Origin: Bacteroidales bacterium
GTDB taxonomy: Bacteria > Bacteroidota > Bacteroidia > Bacteroidales > VadinHA17
Assembly (NCBI GenBank): GCA_003141895.1
Contig: PLNT01000018.1
Coordinates: 1-64,000 of the forward strand
Length of the DNA: 64,000 nt
Reading direction: 5' to 3'
The notes under the pieces were generated by a model. The model had not been told where the DNA came from and did not search any database. It saw only the letters and a program-made list of their open reading frames with translations. How positions within the stretch are numbered: the first letter of the stretch is position 1; each line of letters opens with the position of its first letter. Shown here piece after piece: positions 7,454-14,292 of the stretch. A program made the translations under genes and the position numbers.

Positions 7454-7762
7454 TTAATTCACACAGCAAATCATACTCTGATAATGAGATAGTTCCTCAG
7501 TCTCCTGATAATGCAGAATACTGTACAATACTTTTTCCGGTGCCAGAGCCTGTATCATTGTTTCTTTCTTCTCTGAGCAGTAAGGACAGCTTTTCGATTT
7601 TGCGAAATGTTTTTTCCCCTCTTCTTCGGCATCACAATCTGAATTGAATGATCCCAGGAAATTATTTTTATCACCTTCTGTTAAAAAAGGACAACCTTCT
7701 TTATGAACGGAGTGGAAATCGTTTGTGCGTGGGCGAACAGCGACAAAATATTTTGAATCCAT
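7454..7762 (-). CDS. Small Cys/His-rich protein, probable metal binder
   Basis: A 102-residue protein with no signal peptide. The Cys and His residues fall in a pattern: H20 and C24 (HKEGCPF), C42 in FNSDCDAEEEGKKHF, then CPYCSEK at about 59-65, and a final CC pair near the end. This resembles a compact zinc-binding or Ada-type treble-clef arrangement, but I cannot assign a named family with confidence. Its upstream region carries, in the correct orientation and 71 bp before the ATG, one of the three GGTAAC-N14-CCCGATAAAA motifs also found before the neighbouring GG-peptide gene, so the two divergent genes may be co-regulated. Function unknown. Confidence 0.7.
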   Translation of the reverse strand: MDSKYFVAVRPRTNDFHSVHKEGCPFLTEGDKNNFLGSFNSDCDAEEEGKKHFAKSKSCPYCSEKKETMIQALAPEKVLYSILHYQETEELSHYQSMICCVN

Positions 7763-7832: not shown

Positions 7833-7862
7833 TTTTATCGGGATTCTTCGTAAATTGTTACC
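7833..7862 (-). promoter_or_regulatory. Two-box promoter-like motif A (ECF type)
   Basis: Read on the minus strand this is GGTAAC, 14 bases, CCCGATAAAA. It lies 71 bp before the ATG of the 102-residue Cys-rich protein. The two boxes and their exact spacing recur in motifs B and C, while the spacer varies in the middle; this is what a -35/-10 pair recognised by an alternative sigma factor looks like (many ECF promoters have an AAC core at -35). The assignment to the sigma factor encoded at 12296-12913 is inferred from proximity. Confidence 0.6.
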
Positions 7863-8095
7863 TGAAACATTGAATTTTTAAAGGATTAAGTTGTAAAAAA
7901 AAACAGGATCGAAGGCTACAAACATATTATCAAATAATGTTAAACGAAATTGTCATTAATCCAGGATATTATTCTAATTCATGCGGGGTATATCATAAAA
8001 AAAACTCAAAAAAAATATTATTTCATAAGTGTTTATGGTATAGTAATTTATGAAGTTTAAGAAATAAAGTTTTGAGTAATATTTCGAAATATTCA

Positions 8096-8125
8096 GGTAA
8101 CATTTTGATGCATATTCCGATAAAA
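8096..8125 (+). promoter_or_regulatory. Two-box promoter-like motif B (ECF type)
   Basis: GGTAAC at 8096-8101, 14 bases, TCCGATAAAA at 8116-8125. The ATG of the GG peptide is 35 bp further on, giving a short leader of usual length if transcription starts about 6 bp after the second box. It is the best placed of the three copies. Confidence 0.65.
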
Positions 8126-8160
8126 CCCCGGAATTTAACTTAAAACTAAATCATAAAATC

Positions 8161-8322
8161 ATGAAAAAGGAAGACAAATCAGCCGTAACAAACAAAACAT
8201 TTGATCAGTTAATTTCGAAATTATCAGAAAACGAAATTTTAAATATTCAGGCAATGAGCTATGTAAGAGGTGGAAATGTAGACGAAGGAGGAGGTTCCCC
8301 AGTAATTATTTACCCAAAATAG
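8161..8322 (+). CDS. Double-glycine leader peptide precursor (53 aa)
   Basis: A 53-codon gene starting MKKEDKSAVTNK. Residues 17-38 look like the leader of Bacteroidota GG-type natural-product or secreted-peptide precursors: an amphipathic helix with the LSENE element (residues 21-25), Met32 and a Gly37-Gly38 pair followed by Asn39. After the GG the putative 15-residue core is acidic and Gly-rich, then hydrophobic, ending VIIYPK; it contains no Cys and one Ser, so lanthionine chemistry is unlikely. The gene has a dedicated promoter-like motif 35 bp upstream and a strong terminator 34 bp downstream, so it should be a discrete, possibly abundant mRNA. The next gene is the secreted TPR-CHAT protease. 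Substrate, signal or effector roles are all inference. No peptidase-ABC exporter or modification enzyme is nearby. Confidence 0.72.
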   Translation: MKKEDKSAVTNKTFDQLISKLSENEILNIQAMSYVRGGNVDEGGGSPVIIYPK

Positions 8323-8355
8323 TAAGTCAGGCCAGATAACTTTATAATTTGAATG

Positions 8356-8398
8356 AAGAGCATTACTGTAAATTGTAATGCTCTTTTATTTTTTTTGT
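8356..8398 (+). terminator. Strong intrinsic terminator after the GG peptide
   Basis: A perfect 11-bp stem pairs 8356-8366 with 8375-8385 around an 8-nt loop, followed by a T-rich tract to 8396. It isolates the peptide transcript from the CHAT gene, which starts 67 bp further on. Confidence 0.88.
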
Positions 8399-8417
8399 AT
8401 AATTTAAATTTTATTAA

Positions 8418-8445
8418 TTTGCTGACAATACATTTTTTTACTTTG
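8418..8445 (+). promoter_or_regulatory. Possible primary-sigma promoter of the CHAT gene
   Basis: TTTG at 8418-8421 and TTACTTTG at 8438-8445 resemble the Bacteroidota -33 and -7 boxes, although the second differs from TAnnTTTG at one position and the spacing is short. It lies after the terminator and 20 bp before the start codon, so the protease gene probably has its own promoter. Confidence 0.35.
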
Positions 8446-8464
8446 AGGTATATATTCCTGGATC

Positions 8465-11233
8465 TTGAAAAAGCTTTTTCTACTTGTATTGTTTTCATTT
8501 TTGCTGACATTTTTGAATCATTCAAATGCCCAAAAAGAAAATTTTAGTACAGGCTTTCAAAAGTTTCTGAAGTATTATAATGGTGGAGATTTTTTAAAGG
8601 CTGAAAAATCCCTTGTTTACACTCTGGAATCTAGTGATTCTTTAACGGCAAATCACCTAATTGTATTATATAATAATCTGGGAGTGGTTTGTATAGCTTT
8701 GGGCAAGTTTGACAAAGCCCTTGAATATAATTATAAAGCAGAATCTTTCACCAGGAAGGAAGATCAGAATGGTCAGAATATAGCTGATATTTTTAATAAC
8801 CGGGGATATATTTTTTATAATAAAAAATCATTTGATGTAGCCATTGATTATCTTGAAAAAAGTATAAGGATATATCAGAATCTTGATAACCAGAATCAAA
8901 ATGTATTAGGTAATTTATCATCAGCTTATATCAATATAAGTATTGCTTATATAGAAACAAAAAAATATTTATTAGCACTTCATTACCTCAAAAAAAATGT
9001 TGATCTCAATGTTAAAAACAGTCTTACCGGGTTGCCGTTAACTTATCTTAATCTTGCAAAAACGTATACGAAAATTGGAAATTCCATTAAAACTGAGGAA
9101 TATTATCTGAAATGTACTGCAAGTTTTAAAAAAAAATATGGTGATGGGTATTACAGAATGGCTGAAGTGTATTTTGGCTATGGACTTTTCCTCAGATCAG
9201 AAAATAAAATCGATGAAGCTCTAAATGCTCATAAAATAGCCCTGACTATTTGTCTAAAAAACTATGGAGAAAAACACACCCTTGTTTCTTTATCTTATAA
9301 ACATATTGGTGATGACTATTTCATTCAGAAAAAATACGATTCTTCTTTGTACTATTATCAGAAATCGCTCATTGCTGTTGTGAGGGACTTTAATAATCCT
9401 GATATTTATTCCAACCCTTCAGTTGACTCCTCATTATTTGATATCCGTCTGCTCGATAATTTAAAAAGCAAATCCCAGGCTCTTGAACTCTTTGGAGGTG
9501 AACAAAAAGATCCGGCTGTAAAACTCAAATGCCTGAACAGCAGTCTTGCCACAATTGACCTTGTCCTTCAGCTTATTGACAGGATAAGAAATAATTATAT
9601 GTCGGAGGAAAGCCGTATTTACCTGGCTGAGAATGAAAAGGAAACTTATCTCTTTGCAACCCATATTGCTTATAGTCTGTATTTGCTGACACATGATCCA
9701 GGGATGGGAGAAAAAATGTATTCAATAGCCCAGAAGGCAAAAGCAGCAATTCTCCGAAATGAGATAACCGGGAATGAATTGCTTTATTCATCAGGTGTTC
9801 CTGATTCTCTTCGAGAGAAGCAGAATACTCTTTCTTCGGAAATTGCAGCCTACAACAATCTTATTCTTGAAGAAAGCCTTAAAATCCTTCCCGACAGTAA
9901 TAAAATCACCCTCTGGAAAGATGCTCTTTTTGACATGAACCGTGAAAAAGAGAAAGTTACTGCGAAAATTGAAACTGTATTTCCAAAGTTCCACGATCTG
10001 ATCAGGAAAACAGAACCTGATTCGTTGAAAGAAATTCAGGATCAGCTGAAAAAGGATGAAACAATAGTGGATTATCTCCTCTCGAATCAATATACTGAAG
10101 GCAAAAGAAAACTATATGTGTTTTTAATCTCAGACAAAAGCCTTAAATTCAATGAATTATGGCTTGATTCTCTTTTTGTCAAAAATGCCGATATTCTCAG
10201 GAAAACTTCCAACCCGACTCTCGGTGGATCAAAAGCAAGTTACATTGCTTATACTGACGCACTTCACTACATGTATCTGAATCTGATAAAACCAGTTGAT
10301 GAACAATTTACAGGGAAAAGGCTTATTATTATACCTGATGAAGAGATTGGCTGGCTTCCTTTTGATGCATTTATAAAAAACAAACCTTCCGGGGAACAAA
10401 CAGATTATGAAGGACTTCAATATCTGATTAATGATTACACATTTTCATATGGCTATTCTTCCTCTCTGATATTTAATAAAAGCCGGAACTTAACTGCAGG
10501 AGCAAAAGTTTTTGCATTCTCTCCCGATTACGATAATTCAAAGGCGGGTGGTGGTGCTTCTCTTCACGGGACGGGTGTTGAGATAGGATCTATTTATAAT
10601 GGATTCAGCGGTGAAAAATTCACCGGGAAGGATGCCACAAAAGCAAATTTTATGACCTCATTAAAGAAACCGGTAATCCTTCATCTGGCTATGCATTCAA
10701 TGTCCGACAGCATTAATTCAAAGTATTCTTATCTTCTGTTCGACACTCATAATAATCCTGAGAAGGAAGGAAAGTTATATAATTATGAGATCAGCCTTAC
10801 AAGGATTATATCACCGATGGTTGTATTGAGTGCATGTAATTCAGGGACAGGCACCTTATATTTCGGTGAGGGATTAATGAGCCTGGCCAGGAGCTTTACG
10901 CTTGCAGGTGCATCATCTGTGATCAAAACAGCCTGGGACATTAATGATGAAGCAAGTGCGTCTGTGATGACAAATTATTATCATTATTTGTCGAAAGGGA
11001 AGGAAAAAAATGAAGCAATGAGGCTGGCAAAACTTGAGTATCTCAAAAACGCTGCTCCCGAATTTACTCATCCATATTTCTGGGCGGCATACGAAGTCCT
11101 GGGTGACAATTCACCGGTTGTGTACGATTCACGCAAACATGTTATTGTGATAAGTCTGGCGGTGTTCTTTACAGCCTTGATTTTGTTTTTCTACTTTAAA
11201 CGCCGTAAAATCTTTTCTGAACGTTCGCGGTAA
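8465..11233 (+). CDS. Secreted, membrane-anchored TPR-CHAT caspase-like protease
   Basis: A 922-residue protein with TTG start, supported because the frame then opens with a good signal peptide (residues 1-22, cleavage after SNA). Residues about 30-310 are tetratricopeptide repeats (NNLGVVCIALGKFDKALEYN, YINISIAYIETKKYLLALHYL). A coiled or helical linker follows. Residues about 600-885 form a CHAT domain, a clan CD cysteine-protease fold: His744 in HLAMHSM and Cys791 in LSACNSGTG make the expected dyad, and GEGLMSLARSFTLAGASSVI after the Cys is characteristic. A transmembrane helix near residues 892-911 followed by KRRK anchors the C terminus. The catalytic part should therefore be in the periplasm. 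It overlaps the end of the opposing TPR gene by 43 bp. The GG peptide upstream is a candidate substrate, and the anti-sigma-like TPR protein is another; both are inference. Confidence 0.92.
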   Translation: MKKLFLLVLFSFLLTFLNHSNAQKENFSTGFQKFLKYYNGGDFLKAEKSLVYTLESSDSLTANHLIVLYNNLGVVCIALGKFDKALEYNYKAESFTRKEDQNGQNIADIFNNRGYIFYNKKSFDVAIDYLEKSIRIYQNLDNQNQNVLGNLSSAYINISIAYIETKKYLLALHYLKKNVDLNVKNSLTGLPLTYLNLAKTYTKIGNSIKTEEYYLKCTASFKKKYGDGYYRMAEVYFGYGLFLRSENKIDEALNAHKIALTICLKNYGEKHTLVSLSYKHIGDDYFIQKKYDSSLYYYQKSLIAVVRDFNNPDIYSNPSVDSSLFDIRLLDNLKSKSQALELFGGEQKDPAVKLKCLNSSLATIDLVLQLIDRIRNNYMSEESRIYLAENEKETYLFATHIAYSLYLLTHDPGMGEKMYSIAQKAKAAILRNEITGNELLYSSGVPDSLREKQNTLSSEIAAYNNLILEESLKILPDSNKITLWKDALFDMNREKEKVTAKIETVFPKFHDLIRKTEPDSLKEIQDQLKKDETIVDYLLSNQYTEGKRKLYVFLISDKSLKFNELWLDSLFVKNADILRKTSNPTLGGSKASYIAYTDALHYMYLNLIKPVDEQFTGKRLIIIPDEEIGWLPFDAFIKNKPSGEQTDYEGLQYLINDYTFSYGYSSSLIFNKSRNLTAGAKVFAFSPDYDNSKAGGGASLHGTGVEIGSIYNGFSGEKFTGKDATKANFMTSLKKPVILHLAMHSMSDSINSKYSYLLFDTHNNPEKEGKLYNYEISLTRIISPMVVLSACNSGTGTLYFGEGLMSLARSFTLAGASSVIKTAWDINDEASASVMTNYYHYLSKGKEKNEAMRLAKLEYLKNAAPEFTHPYFWAAYEVLGDNSPVVYDSRKHVIVISLAVFFTALILFFYFKRRKIFSERSR

Positions 11234-12186
11234 TATCCATCAGACCTTGCAAGAATTCCGAAACATTCTTCAGCTTTTTGTTTATTGTTTGTTTTAAGGT
11301 ATGTGAGTCCTAAATACCACCTGGCTTCTTTTGCGTATTCGCCCTGTTCATTTAACACTCCGGAAAAGATATTTTCGGCCTGGCCGTAATTCTCAAGCGA
11401 TAGCTGTGATAGACCCAGAAAGAAACGGGCAGAGACAGATGATGGATATTTCTCCAGAATACCTGCAAATTCCGCTGCTGATTTCTGGTAATCACCCGAT
11501 TTATAACTTTCTTCTGCTGCAGAATACTTATCAGTTTCAGTATTATTTATGGTTCTGGTTACAGATGATAACGCCTCAAATGGTTTATAATAAGTACTAA
11601 AAAGTTTATCCGGATTTGAAGAGGGCAGTAGCGTCCTTAGAAGAATAAACGCACCAAGCATTGCTGCAGCTGTGAGGGAAGCATAGCGTATGAAAAGATT
11701 CCTGGTTTTCACAGGTTCCTTCCTGGGCGAGCTGATGGCGTCAGTAATAAAATTTCTGATCTCTTCAGATTTCGGATCAGAAATTCCGCTCTTCTGTTTT
11801 TTCTCATGCCATTCACTTACCCAGTCTGCGGTTATTTCATTCAGTTTATTGTTATTAATCTCCTGTTTTATAGATTCTATTTCATCTGACAGCATATCTT
11901 CCGAAAATCTGTCTGAGAAAATTTCCCTGATGAATTTTTCGTTTTCCCTGTTTCCCGATTTGTTCTTATTATAGTCAGAAATCATCACCTTAACAGTTTC
12001 CCGGGTGCTTTGAAATGCCGTGTCGTTATGAACATCCTCAAGGTCGGATTGTCCTTTCATATAATCACCAATTGTTTCACAAAGAGCACTGTCTTCTTTA
12101 TCAGATATCAGTTCATCCTCAAAACCATCTCTGGTACTGAAAACTTCCTCTGGTATGTTATTGATATATCTGATTCTCTTATCCAC
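11191..12186 (-). CDS. Single-pass membrane TPR protein, candidate anti-sigma partner
   Basis: A 331-residue protein with a bipartite layout. Residues 1-166 are charged, rich in Asp, Glu and Lys, and have no signal peptide, so they should be cytoplasmic. One transmembrane helix spans about 167-187 (YASLTAAAMLGAFILLRTLL). Residues 220-330 are TPR repeats (YKSGDYQKSAAEFAGIL, FFLGLSQLSLENYGQAENIF, WYLGLTYLKTNNKQKAEECF) that would be periplasmic. This is the topology of a Bacteroidota anti-sigma factor, and the gene lies 109 bp downstream of the ECF-like sigma gene on the same strand, but no classical zinc-binding anti-sigma motif is present. Its last 43 bp overlap the tail of the CHAT gene on the other strand. 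Confidence 0.8.
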   Translation of the reverse strand: MDKRIRYINNIPEEVFSTRDGFEDELISDKEDSALCETIGDYMKGQSDLEDVHNDTAFQSTRETVKVMISDYNKNKSGNRENEKFIREIFSDRFSEDMLSDEIESIKQEINNNKLNEITADWVSEWHEKKQKSGISDPKSEEIRNFITDAISSPRKEPVKTRNLFIRYASLTAAAMLGAFILLRTLLPSSNPDKLFSTYYKPFEALSSVTRTINNTETDKYSAAEESYKSGDYQKSAAEFAGILEKYPSSVSARFFLGLSQLSLENYGQAENIFSGVLNEQGEYAKEARWYLGLTYLKTNNKQKAEECFGILARSDGYYRERSEKILRRLK

Positions 12187-12221
12187 TTTATCGTTTCTCG
12201 TTTATTGTTCCTTTAAGTTTT

Positions 12222-12294
12222 TCTTTTATCTTTTTCCTTTTGTCTTTTATCTTTTATCTTTTTCCTCACGCCTCAACCTCAGCCTTAGCCTTAG
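12222..12294. repeat. Pyrimidine-rich low-complexity tract
   Basis: The gap between the sigma gene and the TPR gene consists largely of repeated CTTTTATCTTT-like units, then CCTCAACCTCAGCCTTAGCC. On the coding strand it is purine-rich and would form an unstructured leader for the downstream TPR gene. It may be prone to slippage. Confidence 0.6.
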
Positions 12295-12295
12295 C

Positions 12296-12913
12296 TTATT
12301 GCACAACTTCCCTTGAAGCAATCTCACTATTTTTTATCCGCATGTAAGCAGGATGTGTTTTAACTTTTTCAATAAGTTCGCTTTGTGCCTCAGATTTTTT
12401 CTTTCTTACGTAACCATATGTATAGCCGAGCTTATCTGCAATTTCCTGAGGCGACTTCTCCTGCCAGTATAGTTTAAGTATCTTTTTACTGACAGGATCA
12501 AGAGTATTAAAAACCTTCTGGAAAATTTCTTCATACATCTGGTGATCCATAAACTCTGTAAAATCTTTTTCCGACTCGGGTTCCGGTCTTCGTGTAAAAT
12601 ATTTATTTGCGGCATATCTTTTTTCAAGAAGGGTTTTCCACAGGTGCTCGCATACGCAATACAAAAATGTTTTGAACTTACAGGTCATGACAAATTTTTT
12701 ATCATCAAGTTTTTCAAGCATTATTATCAGACCATCCTGAAAAATATCGCTTGCATCCTCAGATGTTCCCCCTTTCTGATAAACCATCATCCTGATCATT
12801 GGCATATACCTGTCGGAGAGATAATGAACAACATAACTCTGACGGTTTCTCAGACATTCGATGATTTCATTATCACTATATTCTTTCACAGCAAATGAAA
12901 AATTTTCTAGCAA
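12296..12913 (-). CDS. ECF-type RNA polymerase sigma factor
   Basis: A 205-residue sigma-70 family protein of ECF size. Region 2 is residues about 12-90: YVVHYLSDRYMPMIRMMVY, then EDASDIFQDGLIIMLEKL (region 2.1-2.2 with the usual D-F-Q-(D/E) core) and CKFKTFLYCVCEHLWKTLLEK (2.3-2.4). Region 4 is residues about 130-190: LDPVSKKILKLYWQEKSPQEIADKLGYTYGYVRKKKSEAQSEL, a helix-turn-helix. The start is TTG; an alternative GTG lies 8 codons in. The gene is followed by the membrane TPR protein that may hold it at the membrane. It is the most likely reader of the GGTAAC-N14-YCCGATWAAA motifs in this island. Confidence 0.88.
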   Translation of the reverse strand: MLENFSFAVKEYSDNEIIECLRNRQSYVVHYLSDRYMPMIRMMVYQKGGTSEDASDIFQDGLIIMLEKLDDKKFVMTCKFKTFLYCVCEHLWKTLLEKRYAANKYFTRRPEPESEKDFTEFMDHQMYEEIFQKVFNTLDPVSKKILKLYWQEKSPQEIADKLGYTYGYVRKKKSEAQSELIEKVKTHPAYMRIKNSEIASREVVQ

Positions 12914-12977
12914 TTTATTAATAATTCAAATATACTACTTTTTTCGATTAAAAACTAATTATTAAACGCCTCACGTA

Positions 12978-13007
12978 GGTAACAATTTCATACCTATTCC
13001 GATTAAA
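12978..13007 (+). promoter_or_regulatory. Two-box promoter-like motif C (ECF type)
   Basis: GGTAAC at 12978-12983, 14 bases, TCCGATTAAA at 12998-13007. It points at the split PAS-histidine kinase starting at 13112 and lies 65 bp from the start of the divergent sigma gene. A partial second copy of the -10-like box (TCCGAGTAAA) follows at 13020 without a partner box. Spacing is identical to motifs A and B. Confidence 0.6.
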
Positions 13008-13111
13008 CCAATGATTTAATCCGAGTAAAACAGATTTATTTCTGTAAAGGATTGAAAATGTATGCTTTGCTGATTTCATAAAAATGGGATTGACAGAGTT
13101 GTAATTTATTT

Positions 13112-13615
13112 ATGGGCACAGTGAAAATTAGAAAGTCAATTAAAAATAAAATAATTATGGGAACTGAGACTTCTCCCGGTTTATTGCATTACCAATTTGG
13201 TAAGGAAGTGGAAGAACAATGCATTACTCCTGAACAAATTTATTGTCAGACTATTGAAAATGCAGGTGGCGTACCTTATCAGCTCATTTTTGGCCCTGAA
13301 CTTGGTGAAGGATGGTACCGGAATATAGGCTACGGGATAAAAAACCTTTTTGATGTCAATCCTTTTGAATTTACAGAGACGCTTTATCAGCGAATGATTG
13401 AAAAGATAATTCCTCTCAATGAGGACATCCCGCCAGATCCATCGGAAACACGCAGACGAATTATAAACAGGCAGATTCAAAATTACAATGCAGAAATCTT
13501 GTTGCAATTCTCAAATGGCGAGAAGAAATGGATTAAAGATACATCAGTGAACAGAAGCAAATGTATCTCGACCTTGAAAAGGCCATGGACAAGGCGACGG
13601 AAAGCGACCGTTTAA
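13112..13615 (+). CDS. PAS-like sensor fragment, 5' part of a disrupted histidine kinase
   Basis: The first 149 residues read as a PAS-type sensor (GEGWYRNIGYGIKNLFDVNP, then SNGEKKWIKDTSV), with PPDPSETRRRIINRQ between. After TSV the reading frame changes: the last 18 residues are basic and nonsense-like, while the neighbouring frame continues with EQKQMYLDLEKA, the usual link between a PAS domain and a histidine-kinase dimerisation helix. The expected final PAS strands are missing, so the simplest reading is an internal out-of-frame deletion near 13550. A second Met at 13157 is an alternative start. No membrane segment is present, so the original kinase would be cytoplasmic. Confidence 0.6.
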   Translation: MGTVKIRKSIKNKIIMGTETSPGLLHYQFGKEVEEQCITPEQIYCQTIENAGGVPYQLIFGPELGEGWYRNIGYGIKNLFDVNPFEFTETLYQRMIEKIIPLNEDIPPDPSETRRRIINRQIQNYNAEILLQFSNGEKKWIKDTSVNRSKCISTLKRPWTRRRKATV

Positions 13616-14292
13616 AAACTGCATTTCTGAATAATTTATCTCATGAGATAAGAACACCTCTGAATGCTATTGTCGGATTTACTACTCTTCTGGGAGAAAC
13701 CGGGAATCTCAACGAGGACCGGATGGAATTTATGGAAATTATTACCCACAGCTCCGACCATTTACTTGAAATAGTTGATGATATAGTAGAGATTTCAAAG
13801 ATAGAAGCTAAACTCGTAAAGCTGACATATAAAGAAATAAATATAAACGAAATGCTTCAGCGTTTGTATGTCAGATTCAAACCTTCAGCTGATGAAAAAA
13901 ATATTATTCTGAATTACAACAAAAAAATATATGACAAAGAGACCATAATTTTTACTGATGGATATAAGCTTTTCCAGTCGTTGAAAAATCTGATAAGTAA
14001 TGCGATTAAGTTCACACAGGAAGGTCAGGTTGAATTCGGTTTTAGCGTACTCGATAAAATCCAGTTTTATGTTTCTGATACAGGGATAGGCATAGAGAAA
14101 GAACATCATCAGAATATCTTTAGTTCCTTTTATCAGGCTGAAAGCAGCTGCACGCAGCGTTATGATGGTACCGGTCTGGGTCTTACAATTGCCAGGGCTT
14201 ATGTGGAATTACTCGGTGGTAAAATTTGGTTTTCTTCAGAACCAGGCAAGGGATCATTATTCTGTTTTAATATTCCTGATACGAGACACTAA
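13561..14292 (+). CDS. Histidine kinase core, 3' part of the disrupted kinase
   Basis: A 243-residue kinase core. HisKA: NNLSHEIRTPLNAIVGF with phosphoacceptor His28. HATPase: SLKNLISNAIKFT (N box), SDTGIGIEKEHHQNIFSSFYQAE (G1 and F boxes), GTGLGLTIARAYVELLGG (G2). It lacks a receiver domain. It overlaps the PAS fragment by 55 bp in another frame, and the frame is open back to about 13537. If translated it would be a soluble, sensor-less kinase; more probably the pair is a pseudogene or a recently frameshifted kinase. No response regulator follows within the window. Confidence 0.7.
   Translation: MYLDLEKAMDKATESDRLKTAFLNNLSHEIRTPLNAIVGFTTLLGETGNLNEDRMEFMEIITHSSDHLLEIVDDIVEISKIEAKLVKLTYKEININEMLQRLYVRFKPSADEKNIILNYNKKIYDKETIIFTDGYKLFQSLKNLISNAIKFTQEGQVEFGFSVLDKIQFYVSDTGIGIEKEHHQNIFSSFYQAESSCTQRYDGTGLGLTIARAYVELLGGKIWFSSEPGKGSLFCFNIPDTRH

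What the first reader, a model, noticed from the sequence alone, without database searches (positions are those of the whole stretch)
7833..14292. Candidate undescribed system: GG-leader peptide, secreted TPR-CHAT protease, anti-sigma-like TPR protein and ECF sigma factor
Seen: a 53-residue double-glycine peptide gene, a periplasm-facing CHAT protease with an intact His744-Cys791 dyad, a convergent operon of an ECF-type sigma factor and a membrane protein with anti-sigma topology, and a shared promoter-like motif. Known: CHAT proteases are caspase relatives; in type III-E CRISPR systems a TPR-CHAT protease cleaves Csx30, which in turn controls a sigma factor. Inference: here a CHAT protease may cut the peptide at or near its GG site, or cut the periplasmic TPR part of the anti-sigma-like protein and release the sigma factor, forming a feedback loop that makes more peptide. 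No CRISPR genes are present.
Basis: partly seen in the sequence, partly recalled or inferred. Interest (0 to 1): 0.88.

Follow-up and report, generated by a model that had tools for sequence, protein, structure and literature searches.

The report
Exported-peptide, caspase-like protease, sigma-factor circuit
A Bacteroidales genome carries a conserved gene circuit in which a small exported peptide, a caspase-like protease and a gene-switching sigma factor appear to be wired into a self-reinforcing signal loop, a combination we did not find described in the papers we could search.

Summary
The 53-residue double-glycine (GG) peptide, the TPR-CHAT protease (His744/Cys791), the TPR membrane protein and the ECF sigma factor form a module that recurs in many Bacteroidales families. 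(1) The promoter element GGTAAC-N16-CGATWAA occurs exactly three times in the 4.0-Mb genome, all in this locus: before the peptide-CHAT pair, a small Cys/His protein and a PAS histidine kinase. It recurs there in relatives and not before the sigma gene, so a local, positively fed-back regulon is very likely. (2) The genome's only recognised C39 peptidase (the enzyme type that cuts GG leaders) is a peptide-exporting ABC transporter beside a second CHAT-sigma-TPR locus; 50 of 62 genomes of the genus have this linkage. GG processing is best assigned to C39, not CHAT. (3) The CHAT domain's best solved match by sequence is DdvA, deposited as a transmembrane anti-sigma factor. Best model: the exported acidic peptide gates the periplasmic TPR-CHAT protease, which cuts the TPR anti-sigma protein and frees the sigma factor. 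Architecture and regulon are strongly supported; sigma binding, ligand binding and cleavage are inferred.

The parts
7454..7762 (-). 102-aa small Cys/His protein (called 'up102' here), promoter target of the circuit
   Evidence: ORF; homologue in 16 of the 40 CHAT loci L035-L074, all 16 of them type A; two-box promoter upstream in 16 of 17 loci, GTAAC in 17 of 17
7834..7862 (-). promoter element GGTAAC-N16-CGATWAA reading toward up102
8096..8124 (+). promoter element reading toward the peptide-CHAT pair
8161..8322 (+). 53-aa GG-leader peptide precursor; leader 8161-8274 (ends RGG), predicted mature part NVDEGGGSPVIIYPK 8275-8319
   Evidence: profile search without position information
8355..8396 (+). 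terminator-like hairpin plus T run between peptide and CHAT genes (likely partial terminator)
   Evidence: such a hairpin in 17 of 19 loci against 7 of 950 shuffles
8465..11233 (+). TPR-CHAT protease, 922 aa; N-terminal hydrophobic (signal-like) segment, TPR about residues 24-310, CHAT 603-881, C-terminal membrane anchor 893-911
10694..10696 (+). catalytic His744 codon
   Evidence: 41 of 41 conserved
10835..10837 (+). catalytic Cys791 codon
   Evidence: 41 of 41 conserved
11191..12186 (-). 331-aa membrane TPR protein, probable anti-sigma factor (helical N-terminal part, one TM 164-182, C-terminal TPR)
12296..12913 (-). ECF-type sigma factor, 205 aa
12978..13006 (+). promoter element reading toward the PAS-histidine kinase gene
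13112..13615 (+). PAS part of the histidine kinase gene (gene split in this genome)
   Evidence: PAS seen weakly in the relative L035
13561..14292 (+). HisKA/HATPase part of the same gene in another frame

Best explanation
A sigma-factor signalling circuit gated by an exported peptide. Steps. (a) The sigma factor and its membrane TPR partner are made from their own operon, outside the circuit's control [shown: no circuit promoter upstream]. (b) The TPR partner holds the sigma factor at the membrane through its cytoplasmic N-terminal part [inferred from topology, operon and weak anti-sigma profile hits]. (c) The GG-leader peptide is cut after GG and exported by a C39 peptidase-ABC transporter, probably the one encoded 200 kb away on the same contig beside the sister CHAT locus [inferred; the transporter and its linkage are shown]. 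(d) The mature acidic peptide of about 15 residues binds the kinesin-light-chain-like TPR domain of the periplasmic, membrane-anchored TPR-CHAT protease and switches it on [inferred]. (e) CHAT cuts the periplasmic TPR part of the anti-sigma protein, which leads to release of the sigma factor [inferred]. (f) The sigma factor transcribes peptide-CHAT, the small Cys/His protein and the PAS histidine kinase from GTAAC-N15/19-ATwnA type promoters, with a hairpin after the peptide gene that keeps peptide in excess of protease [promoter pattern and hairpin shown by sequence; that this sigma reads it is inferred]. The result is positive feedback: a self-amplifying, possibly density- or neighbour-sensing switch.
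For: Conservation: of 37 named loci with a full CHAT gene and more than 3 kb on both sides, 33 have the sigma gene, 33 the TPR protein, 25 a GG peptide within 1.5 kb upstream of CHAT and 18 a histidine kinase; GG-peptide hits are 0.47 per kb in that zone against 0.0055 per kb elsewhere in the same loci (the profile included peptides from some of the same genomes). Search without position information: the peptide profile, run over 393 genomes of the order, led to CHAT, sigma or TPR genes of the module in 14 of the 18 hit stretches that I fetched (13 genomes; the 14 come from 10). Regulon: the two-box element lies upstream of the peptide in 17 of 19 loci, of up102 in 16 of 17, of the kinase in 15 of 15, of sigma in 0 of 17, and in 117 of 4000 random 260-nt stretches of the same loci; exact own-genome element 3 times, all here. 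Exporter. Anti-sigma: NCBIfam anti-sigma models hit by 7 of 23 short relatives. Precedent: DdvA is the best PDB sequence match of the CHAT-domain profile, E=2.3e-05, and a Foldseek hit, E=4.9e-13. Ligand idea: 52 of 54 distinct peptides are net negative after GG; the TPR profile matches kinesin light chain (3.3e-30) and NprR (1.1e-22).
Against: No anti-sigma profile hit for the window's own TPR protein; Pfam hits of the short relatives are at noise level (zf-HC2 2 of 23, best 0.0015, beside unrelated LEF-8 2 of 23, best 0.0036); the N-terminal model is only moderately confident (blocks mostly 41-77). The exporter is not in this locus and the sister locus lacks a recognised peptide, so peptide-exporter pairing here is by inference. 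With an HlyD-type partner the exporter may send the peptide out of the cell, and how it would then reach the periplasmic protease is unexplained. An N-terminal hydrophobic segment passes the threshold in only 27 of 41 CHAT proteins (C-terminal one in 41 of 41). The charge of the CHAT TPR region is not consistently basic (median +1, range -20 to +26). DdvA superposes poorly as a whole (TM 0.24-0.25). 12 of 37 CHAT loci have no recognised peptide and 4 no sigma. The kinase is split in this genome.
Confidence: 0.5

Rival explanations
1. The peptide is the substrate or product, not the trigger: CHAT trims or destroys the peptide in the periplasm (or cuts its leader), and the sigma/TPR pair responds to something else such as envelope stress; CHAT and peptide are simply two regulon members.
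For: Peptide and CHAT are neighbours on one strand in type A loci and co-occur. Arg before GG is nearly invariant in the 20-row alignment, which an Arg-directed clan CD protease could use (recalled preference).
Against: GG cutting is already explained by C39 exporters linked to sister loci. The part after GG is itself conserved in type A (pN/pS 0.47). The CHAT relative DdvA is an anti-sigma factor.
Confidence: 0.2
2. CHAT is a sensor/scaffold rather than a protease: as perhaps in DdvA, TPR-CHAT is a ligand-binding periplasmic module that controls the sigma factor by interaction without cleavage.
For: DdvA is deposited as a transmembrane anti-sigma factor and its molecule name is CHAT domain-containing protein.
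Against: The His/Cys dyad is kept in 41 of 41 proteins and is invariant in the 45-row alignment, which a mere scaffold would not need.
Confidence: 0.15
3. The peptide is a bacteriocin-like effector: the circuit is a regulated weapon, with CHAT/TPR giving regulation or immunity.
For: GG leader; C39 exporter with HlyD-type neighbour; Pfam Bacteriocin_IIc match of the Ancylomarina peptide (E=5.5e-4, 20.3 bits, under the 27.1 cut-off); one relative locus (L054) has a Cys-rich GG peptide.
Against: Parts after GG are short (median 18), net negative in 52 of 54 and never positive, with Cys in 4 of 54. Immunity and modification genes were not searched for.
Confidence: 0.12

Closest known systems
DdvA, transmembrane anti-sigma factor (PDB 8rot/8rw5)
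   Same: CHAT domain tied to control of a sigma factor across the membrane; best PDB sequence match of this CHAT-domain profile (E=2.3e-05) and a Foldseek hit (E=4.9e-13).
   Different: In DdvA the anti-sigma function and the CHAT domain are in one chain (from the PDB titles and molecule name; its host Myxococcus and its ECF partner DdvS are recalled, no paper read). Here they are two genes, with an added GG peptide, C39 exporter link, kinase and locus-wide promoters.
Type III-E CRISPR CASP/Craspase (Csx29, Csx30, CASP-sigma), PMC10028731 (passages seen)
   Same: TPR-CHAT protease relieves inhibition of an ECF sigma factor by cutting its inhibitor; best Foldseek hits of the CHAT model.
   Different: Craspase is RNA-guided through Cas7-11; here CHAT carries a signal-like segment and a C-terminal anchor and sits beside a GG peptide; sequence match to Craspase CHAT chains is weak (E 0.098-0.19).
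ECF54 sigma factors with CHAT genes in their context, PMC8999054 (passage seen)
   Same: ECF sigma genes with neighbouring CHAT-domain proteins and proposed control by proteolysis.
   Different: [quoted passage not shown] no peptide or exporter is mentioned there. Kinship with ECF54 could not be tested.
GG-leader peptides with PCAT exporters of Bacteroidales RiPP clusters, PMC10352776 (passages seen)
   Same: GG leaders and C39 exporters in the same order of bacteria.
   Different: Those clusters are built on modification enzymes; in that paper's main text 'sigma' does not occur, and in the passages shown 'chat' matched only author names.
HetF (CHAT, one TM; PMC8406250, passages) and HetC (C39 exporter; PMC10986499, start of abstract in a listing) of heterocyst-forming cyanobacteria
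   Same: A membrane CHAT protein and a C39 peptide exporter are both tied to one cell-differentiation programme.
   Different: No ECF sigma/anti-sigma pair in what I saw; analogy only.

Membership tests
CHAT clan CD proteases (PF12770) | CHAT domain over the curated cut-off | tested here: met
   151.6 bits against cut-off 24
CHAT clan CD proteases (PF12770) | His-Cys dyad | tested here: met
   His744/Cys791, 41 of 41; invariant in 45 rows
CHAT clan CD proteases (PF12770) | proteolytic activity | not testable with these tools
   needs purified protein
ECF sigma factors | sigma regions 2 and 4 only | tested here: met
   TIGR02937 59.3 bits, cut-off 42.9; Sigma70_r2 26.9 bits over its cut-off 24, Sigma70_r4_2 20.6 under its 25.7
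ECF sigma factors | distinct promoter beside the sigma gene | tested here: met
   recognition by this sigma not tested
Transmembrane anti-sigma factors | beside the sigma gene on one strand, N-terminal part before one TM | tested here: met
   (one central segment in 34 of 34 listed proteins)
Transmembrane anti-sigma factors | recognisable anti-sigma domain | tested here: inconclusive
   7 of 23 short relatives hit NCBIfam anti-sigma models, best 2.7e-4; none for the window protein; PDB search of the N-terminal profile gave no anti-sigma, best hit a Nif11 protein at 3.4e-4
C39 (GG-leader) exported peptides | GG leader with hydrophobic -4, -7, -12 | tested here: met
   V35, M32, L27 before G37-G38; GG invariant in 20 of 20; the position rule is recalled
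C39 (GG-leader) exported peptides | C39 exporter in the genome | tested here: met
   one, PF03412 E=3.1e-37, with ABC domains
C39 (GG-leader) exported peptides | exporter in the same gene cluster | tested here: not met
   no homologue of the exporter in the 20 type A stretches L035-L054; present in 21 of 140 stretches, type B and other
DdvA | anti-sigma function and CHAT in one chain | tested here: not met
   separate genes here
Type III-E CRISPR CASP | Cas7-11 and other Cas genes in the locus | tested here: inconclusive
   12 window proteins between 3313 and 18574 scanned against PADLOC-DB, no Cas hit; I did not check which Cas models that library holds, and the rest of the window was not scanned
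ECF54 | sequence membership of the group | not testable with these tools
   no ECF-group models on hand; the classification paper was not held

The most novel reading that the evidence does not exclude
This is a previously unrecognised cell-cell signalling system of Bacteroidota: an exported acidic GG peptide is sensed in the periplasm by the TPR domain of a caspase-like CHAT protease, whose cut of a TPR anti-sigma factor turns on an ECF sigma factor that makes more peptide and protease. It would be a Gram-negative peptide pheromone circuit with a caspase relative as its receptor-protease.
Probability: 0.4. Interest if true: 0.92.

Novelty: new variant of a known kind. Interest (0 to 1): 0.78.

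Why it matters
If right, it gives a non-CRISPR, widespread setting in which a caspase-like CHAT protease controls transcription, and shows a common logic (CHAT acting on sigma inhibition) in three forms: in the anti-sigma chain itself (DdvA), RNA-gated (Craspase) and peptide-gated (here). It would also give Bacteroidales a candidate peptide signalling circuit with predicted signal, exporter, receptor-protease, target and promoters, all directly testable.

Tried and rejected
Two one-mismatch promoter sites on contig 1 (C1:52738, C1:56907): no homologue of the circuit's proteins in that 17-kb stretch; left unexplained. The pairwise promoter-word search between upstream regions had too little contrast to its shuffles (best matches of 11-13 against shuffle maxima of 11-13), so I used the direct listing with the controls. 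The same word search on five type B loci gave no convincing word shared by peptide, CHAT and exporter upstreams; by eye there is one conserved stretch GTGTCACA...ACATGTA between peptide (or TPR) and CHAT, not tested further. The general terminator scan of the locus found 2 sites where shuffles give 4.5 on average, so the window's hairpin alone proves nothing; its recurrence at one place in relatives is the evidence. The N-terminal part of the TPR protein gave no anti-sigma structure in PDB by sequence, and the 50 fold-search rows shown for the whole protein are TPR-type matches. Charge of the CHAT TPR region does not by itself support binding of an acidic peptide. The phylum-wide peptide search (11 of 296 genomes, own included) finds weak hits; neither of the two stretches fetched (four of the 12 places outside the own genome) had the module. 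Defence: the core proteins had one PADLOC hit, a weak TPR match; the kinase part had one hit (PDC-M43B, 8.4e-06) and those of the exporter are to ATPase-type models. Literature: ten searches and passages of five papers showed no description of a GG peptide with CHAT and sigma; most subscription papers are not held, so this is absence in this library only.
Full report
What is there. The window is the start of contig 23 of a 4.0-Mb genome; its own name is not given, and the named records nearest to it are 'Bacteroidales bacterium' MAGs such as fen_983. Left to right lie a 102-aa Cys/His protein on the minus strand (7454-7762), a 53-aa GG-leader peptide (8161-8322), a 922-aa TPR-CHAT protein (8465-11233), then on the minus strand a 331-aa TPR membrane protein (11191-12186) and an ECF sigma factor (12296-12913), and on the plus strand a PAS-histidine kinase split into two frames (13112-13615, 13561-14292). 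The window's CHAT protein has hydrophobic segments at both ends; over 41 CHAT proteins the C-terminal one is seen in 41 and the N-terminal one in 27 at the threshold used. The TPR protein has one central segment, as in 34 of 34 listed. So CHAT and the TPR part of the partner are predicted to face the same side, the periplasm (topology by hydropathy only).

Conservation in the genus. A CHAT search of 146 relatives found matches at E<=1e-20 in 100; these include paralogues. I fetched 20 orthologous loci (at least 42% identity) and 20 others, among them the own genome's second locus. The orthologues keep the order small protein / peptide / CHAT / TPR / sigma / kinase as far as the stretches reach, with exceptions: no kinase hit beside L044, L048, L049 and L054, and in L054 also no small protein and a wide gap before the TPR gene. 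The peptide is found directly upstream of CHAT in 18 of the 20; L044 is cut by the contig end and L054 has none there. Its leader ends mostly in (V/I)RGG and the part after it reads acidic glycines followed by PIIIIP or alike. The substitution pattern is that of a protein under purifying selection: pN/pS 0.30 leader, 0.47 after GG. I call this arrangement type A.

Conservation beyond the genus, tested without position information. A profile of the peptide alone was run over 393 genomes of the order: 44 had a match at E<=0.1. I fetched 18 stretches (13 genomes) for 18 of the 53 places listed, from the better-scoring ones, and two stretches covering four of the 12 foreign places of a phylum-wide sample (11 of 296 genomes with a match, own included). 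Of the 18, 14 (10 genomes) carry CHAT, sigma or TPR-protein genes of the module (12 of them CHAT itself; in L147 only CHAT and a kinase); two of the other four (L139, L155) lie on contigs of 4.5 and 7.6 kb. Neither of the two from the phylum sample has the module; one (L153) is a set of Cys-rich GG peptides. Many distant loci have a second arrangement, type B: the peptide is divergent from CHAT and heads a run peptide-TPR-kinase, with sigma convergent to CHAT. A scan of named genomes returned the best 80 of 289 relatives, several being the same genomes as before. Of the 37 with a full CHAT gene and more than 3 kb on both sides, 33 have sigma, 33 the TPR protein, 25 a GG peptide within 1.5 kb upstream of CHAT, 18 a kinase; 24 have sigma, TPR and peptide together; 12 have no recognised peptide and 4 no sigma. 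GG-peptide hits are about 85 times denser in the 1.5-kb zone than elsewhere in those loci (0.47 against 0.0055 per kb); the profile used there had been enlarged with CHAT-linked peptides, so the search is the cleaner test.

The regulon. The element GGTAAC-N16-CGATWAA occurs exactly three times in the genome: before the small protein, before the peptide and before the kinase; another 15 places have one mismatch, and the pattern read backwards gives 6 places at up to one mismatch. In the window and its orthologous loci a GTAAC lies within 260 nt upstream of the peptide in 18 of 19 (the 19th, L051, has 43 nt of upstream sequence), of the small protein in 17 of 17, of the kinase in 15 of 15, and of sigma in 0 of 17. 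A bare GTAAC is found in 609 of 4000 random 260-nt stretches of these loci, so the two-box form is the fairer measure: GTAAC-N15/19-ATwnA is upstream of the peptide in 17 of 19, of the small protein in 16 of 17, of the kinase in 15 of 15, of sigma in 0 of 17, and in 117 of 4000 random stretches; GGTAACA alone in 13 of 19, 14 of 17, 15 of 15, 0 of 17 and 134 of 4000. The -10 side drifts between loci. These loci share ancestry, so the counts are not independent. I conclude that one sigma factor, by its position this one, drives three units around it and not its own operon. The pattern is shown; that this sigma factor reads it is inferred.

A hairpin after the peptide gene. Between peptide and CHAT genes the window has a stem of 12 pairs followed by TATTTTTTTT (8355-8396); the general scan of the locus found 2 such sites where shuffles give 4.5, so one site means little. 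But a stem of at least 9 pairs with a T run is found in this gap in 17 of 19 type A loci, with different stem sequences, and in 7 of 950 dinucleotide shuffles of the same gaps. The likely meaning is a partial terminator that keeps peptide in excess of protease.

The exporter. C39 peptidases cut GG leaders (general knowledge). The genome has one recognised, at the N-terminus of a 728-aa ABC exporter with an HlyD-type neighbour. It lies 200 kb away on the same contig, beside a second CHAT-sigma-TPR locus in which I could not find a peptide. Homologues of this exporter lie in 21 of the 140 CHAT and peptide stretches that I scanned, none of them type A; some are the same genome from two collections. 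In the genus, 58 of 62 genomes have a C39 match and 50 have one within 4 kb of a type B CHAT gene, median gap 710 nt; all 29 genomes with a type A CHAT gene or fragment have a C39, 27 of them CHAT-linked.

The anti-sigma partner. The TPR protein sits beside sigma on one strand in type A and many other loci. The short relatives have an N-terminal part of about 80 residues with the pattern IExYLxGExxxxExxxFExELxxxPxLxxE; 7 of 23 of them hit an NCBIfam anti-sigma model (best 2.7e-4) and 7 of 23 a putative anti-sigmaE model, while every other NCBIfam family is hit by one member; Pfam gives zf-HC2 and RskA_N for 2 of 23 each, which is no better than unrelated families there. The window protein itself has no such hit, and a PDB search with the N-terminal profile found none. 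Its model is confident in the TPR part and only fair before the membrane segment. The identification as anti-sigma is therefore probable, not proven.

CHAT and its kin. The model of the CHAT protein (mean pLDDT 83.1) matches Craspase TPR-CHAT chains best by Foldseek, with DdvA chains at ranks 7 and 11 (E=4.9e-13 and 3.9e-12, but TM only 0.24-0.25 and rmsd 29) and separases from rank 12 on. By sequence, the best PDB match of the CHAT-domain profile is DdvA, E=2.3e-05, ahead of Craspase chains at 0.098-0.19. DdvA is titled a transmembrane anti-sigma factor and its molecule name is CHAT domain-containing protein; two functions that are separate genes here share one chain there, which argues that CHAT acts on the sigma/anti-sigma pathway. 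The TPR part matches kinesin light chain best among natural proteins (3.3e-30), and also NprR (1.1e-22); kinesin light chains bind short acidic peptides with a hydrophobic residue, and NprR binds a peptide pheromone (both recalled). The peptides after GG are net negative in 52 of 54 distinct sequences and neutral in 2, with proline in 49 and Cys in 4, and several end in motifs such as DPWD, DDEAWL or EEDILFD. Two of the 54 were parsed at a GG that is not the leader's own (L143, L045).

How it most likely works. The exported peptide switches on the periplasmic TPR-CHAT protease; the protease cuts the TPR anti-sigma protein; the sigma factor is freed and makes more peptide and protease, plus a small Cys/His protein and a kinase without a predicted membrane segment. 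Shown by sequence: gene set, order, dyad, predicted topology, promoter pattern, hairpin, exporter linkage. Inferred: sigma recognition, binding, cleavage, release, direction of the signal. Precedents for single steps exist: Csx29 cutting Csx30 to relieve CASP-sigma, and DegS/RseA as cited there (PMC10028731, passages), CHAT genes beside ECF54 sigma factors (PMC8999054, passage), GG peptides with C39 exporters in Bacteroidales (PMC10352776, passages). I did not find the combination described in the searches listed in Tried and rejected; the library lacks most subscription papers.

Open points. How an exported peptide gets back to the periplasm; what starts the loop; what the small protein and the kinase do; whether the split kinase here is a true loss or an assembly error; and why the window genome's second locus has exporter but no recognised peptide while this locus has peptide but no exporter.

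Noticed in passing
window 13112-14292: The PAS-histidine kinase gene is split into two frames; relatives L035, L037, L038 and L040 have 78-81 nt between the two matching stretches where the window has 17 nt, so about 64 nt appear to be missing here. Real loss or assembly error not decided.
   Followed up: partly
own genome C23:204000-218000 (L072): Second CHAT-sigma-TPR locus with C39 exporter and HlyD-type partner but no recognised GG peptide or kinase; in four same-genus loci of this type (L070, L071, L073, L074) a peptide is present at that place.
   Followed up: partly
own genome C1:52738-52766 and C1:56907-56935: Two one-mismatch copies of the promoter element, reading CTATTAA like several kinase promoters of relatives, about 4 kb apart, without homologues of the circuit nearby.
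   Followed up: partly
L070, L071, L072, L073, L074 between peptide (or TPR) and CHAT genes: A conserved stretch GTGTCACA...ACATGTA seen by eye, perhaps the promoter of the type B sigma factor.
   Followed up: no
L153 (6450-17265) and L150: Cys-rich peptides with alike GG leaders (five in L153), bacteriocin-like, without a CHAT hit in the stretch.
   Followed up: no
L216 4345-5281: Two GG peptides of a Marinifilaceae genome with identical tails YSDDPIEEDILFD but different middles.
   Followed up: no
L169: A record titled Peptococcaceae UBA2264 carries a 58% identical locus; the record is probably mislabelled or contaminated with Bacteroidales DNA.
   Followed up: no
L204 and L235: Two TPR-CHAT genes in tandem in one locus.
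   Followed up: no
L054: A type A orthologue without the usual peptide has a Cys-rich GG peptide beyond the sigma gene (13517-13708, E=0.0076).
   Followed up: no
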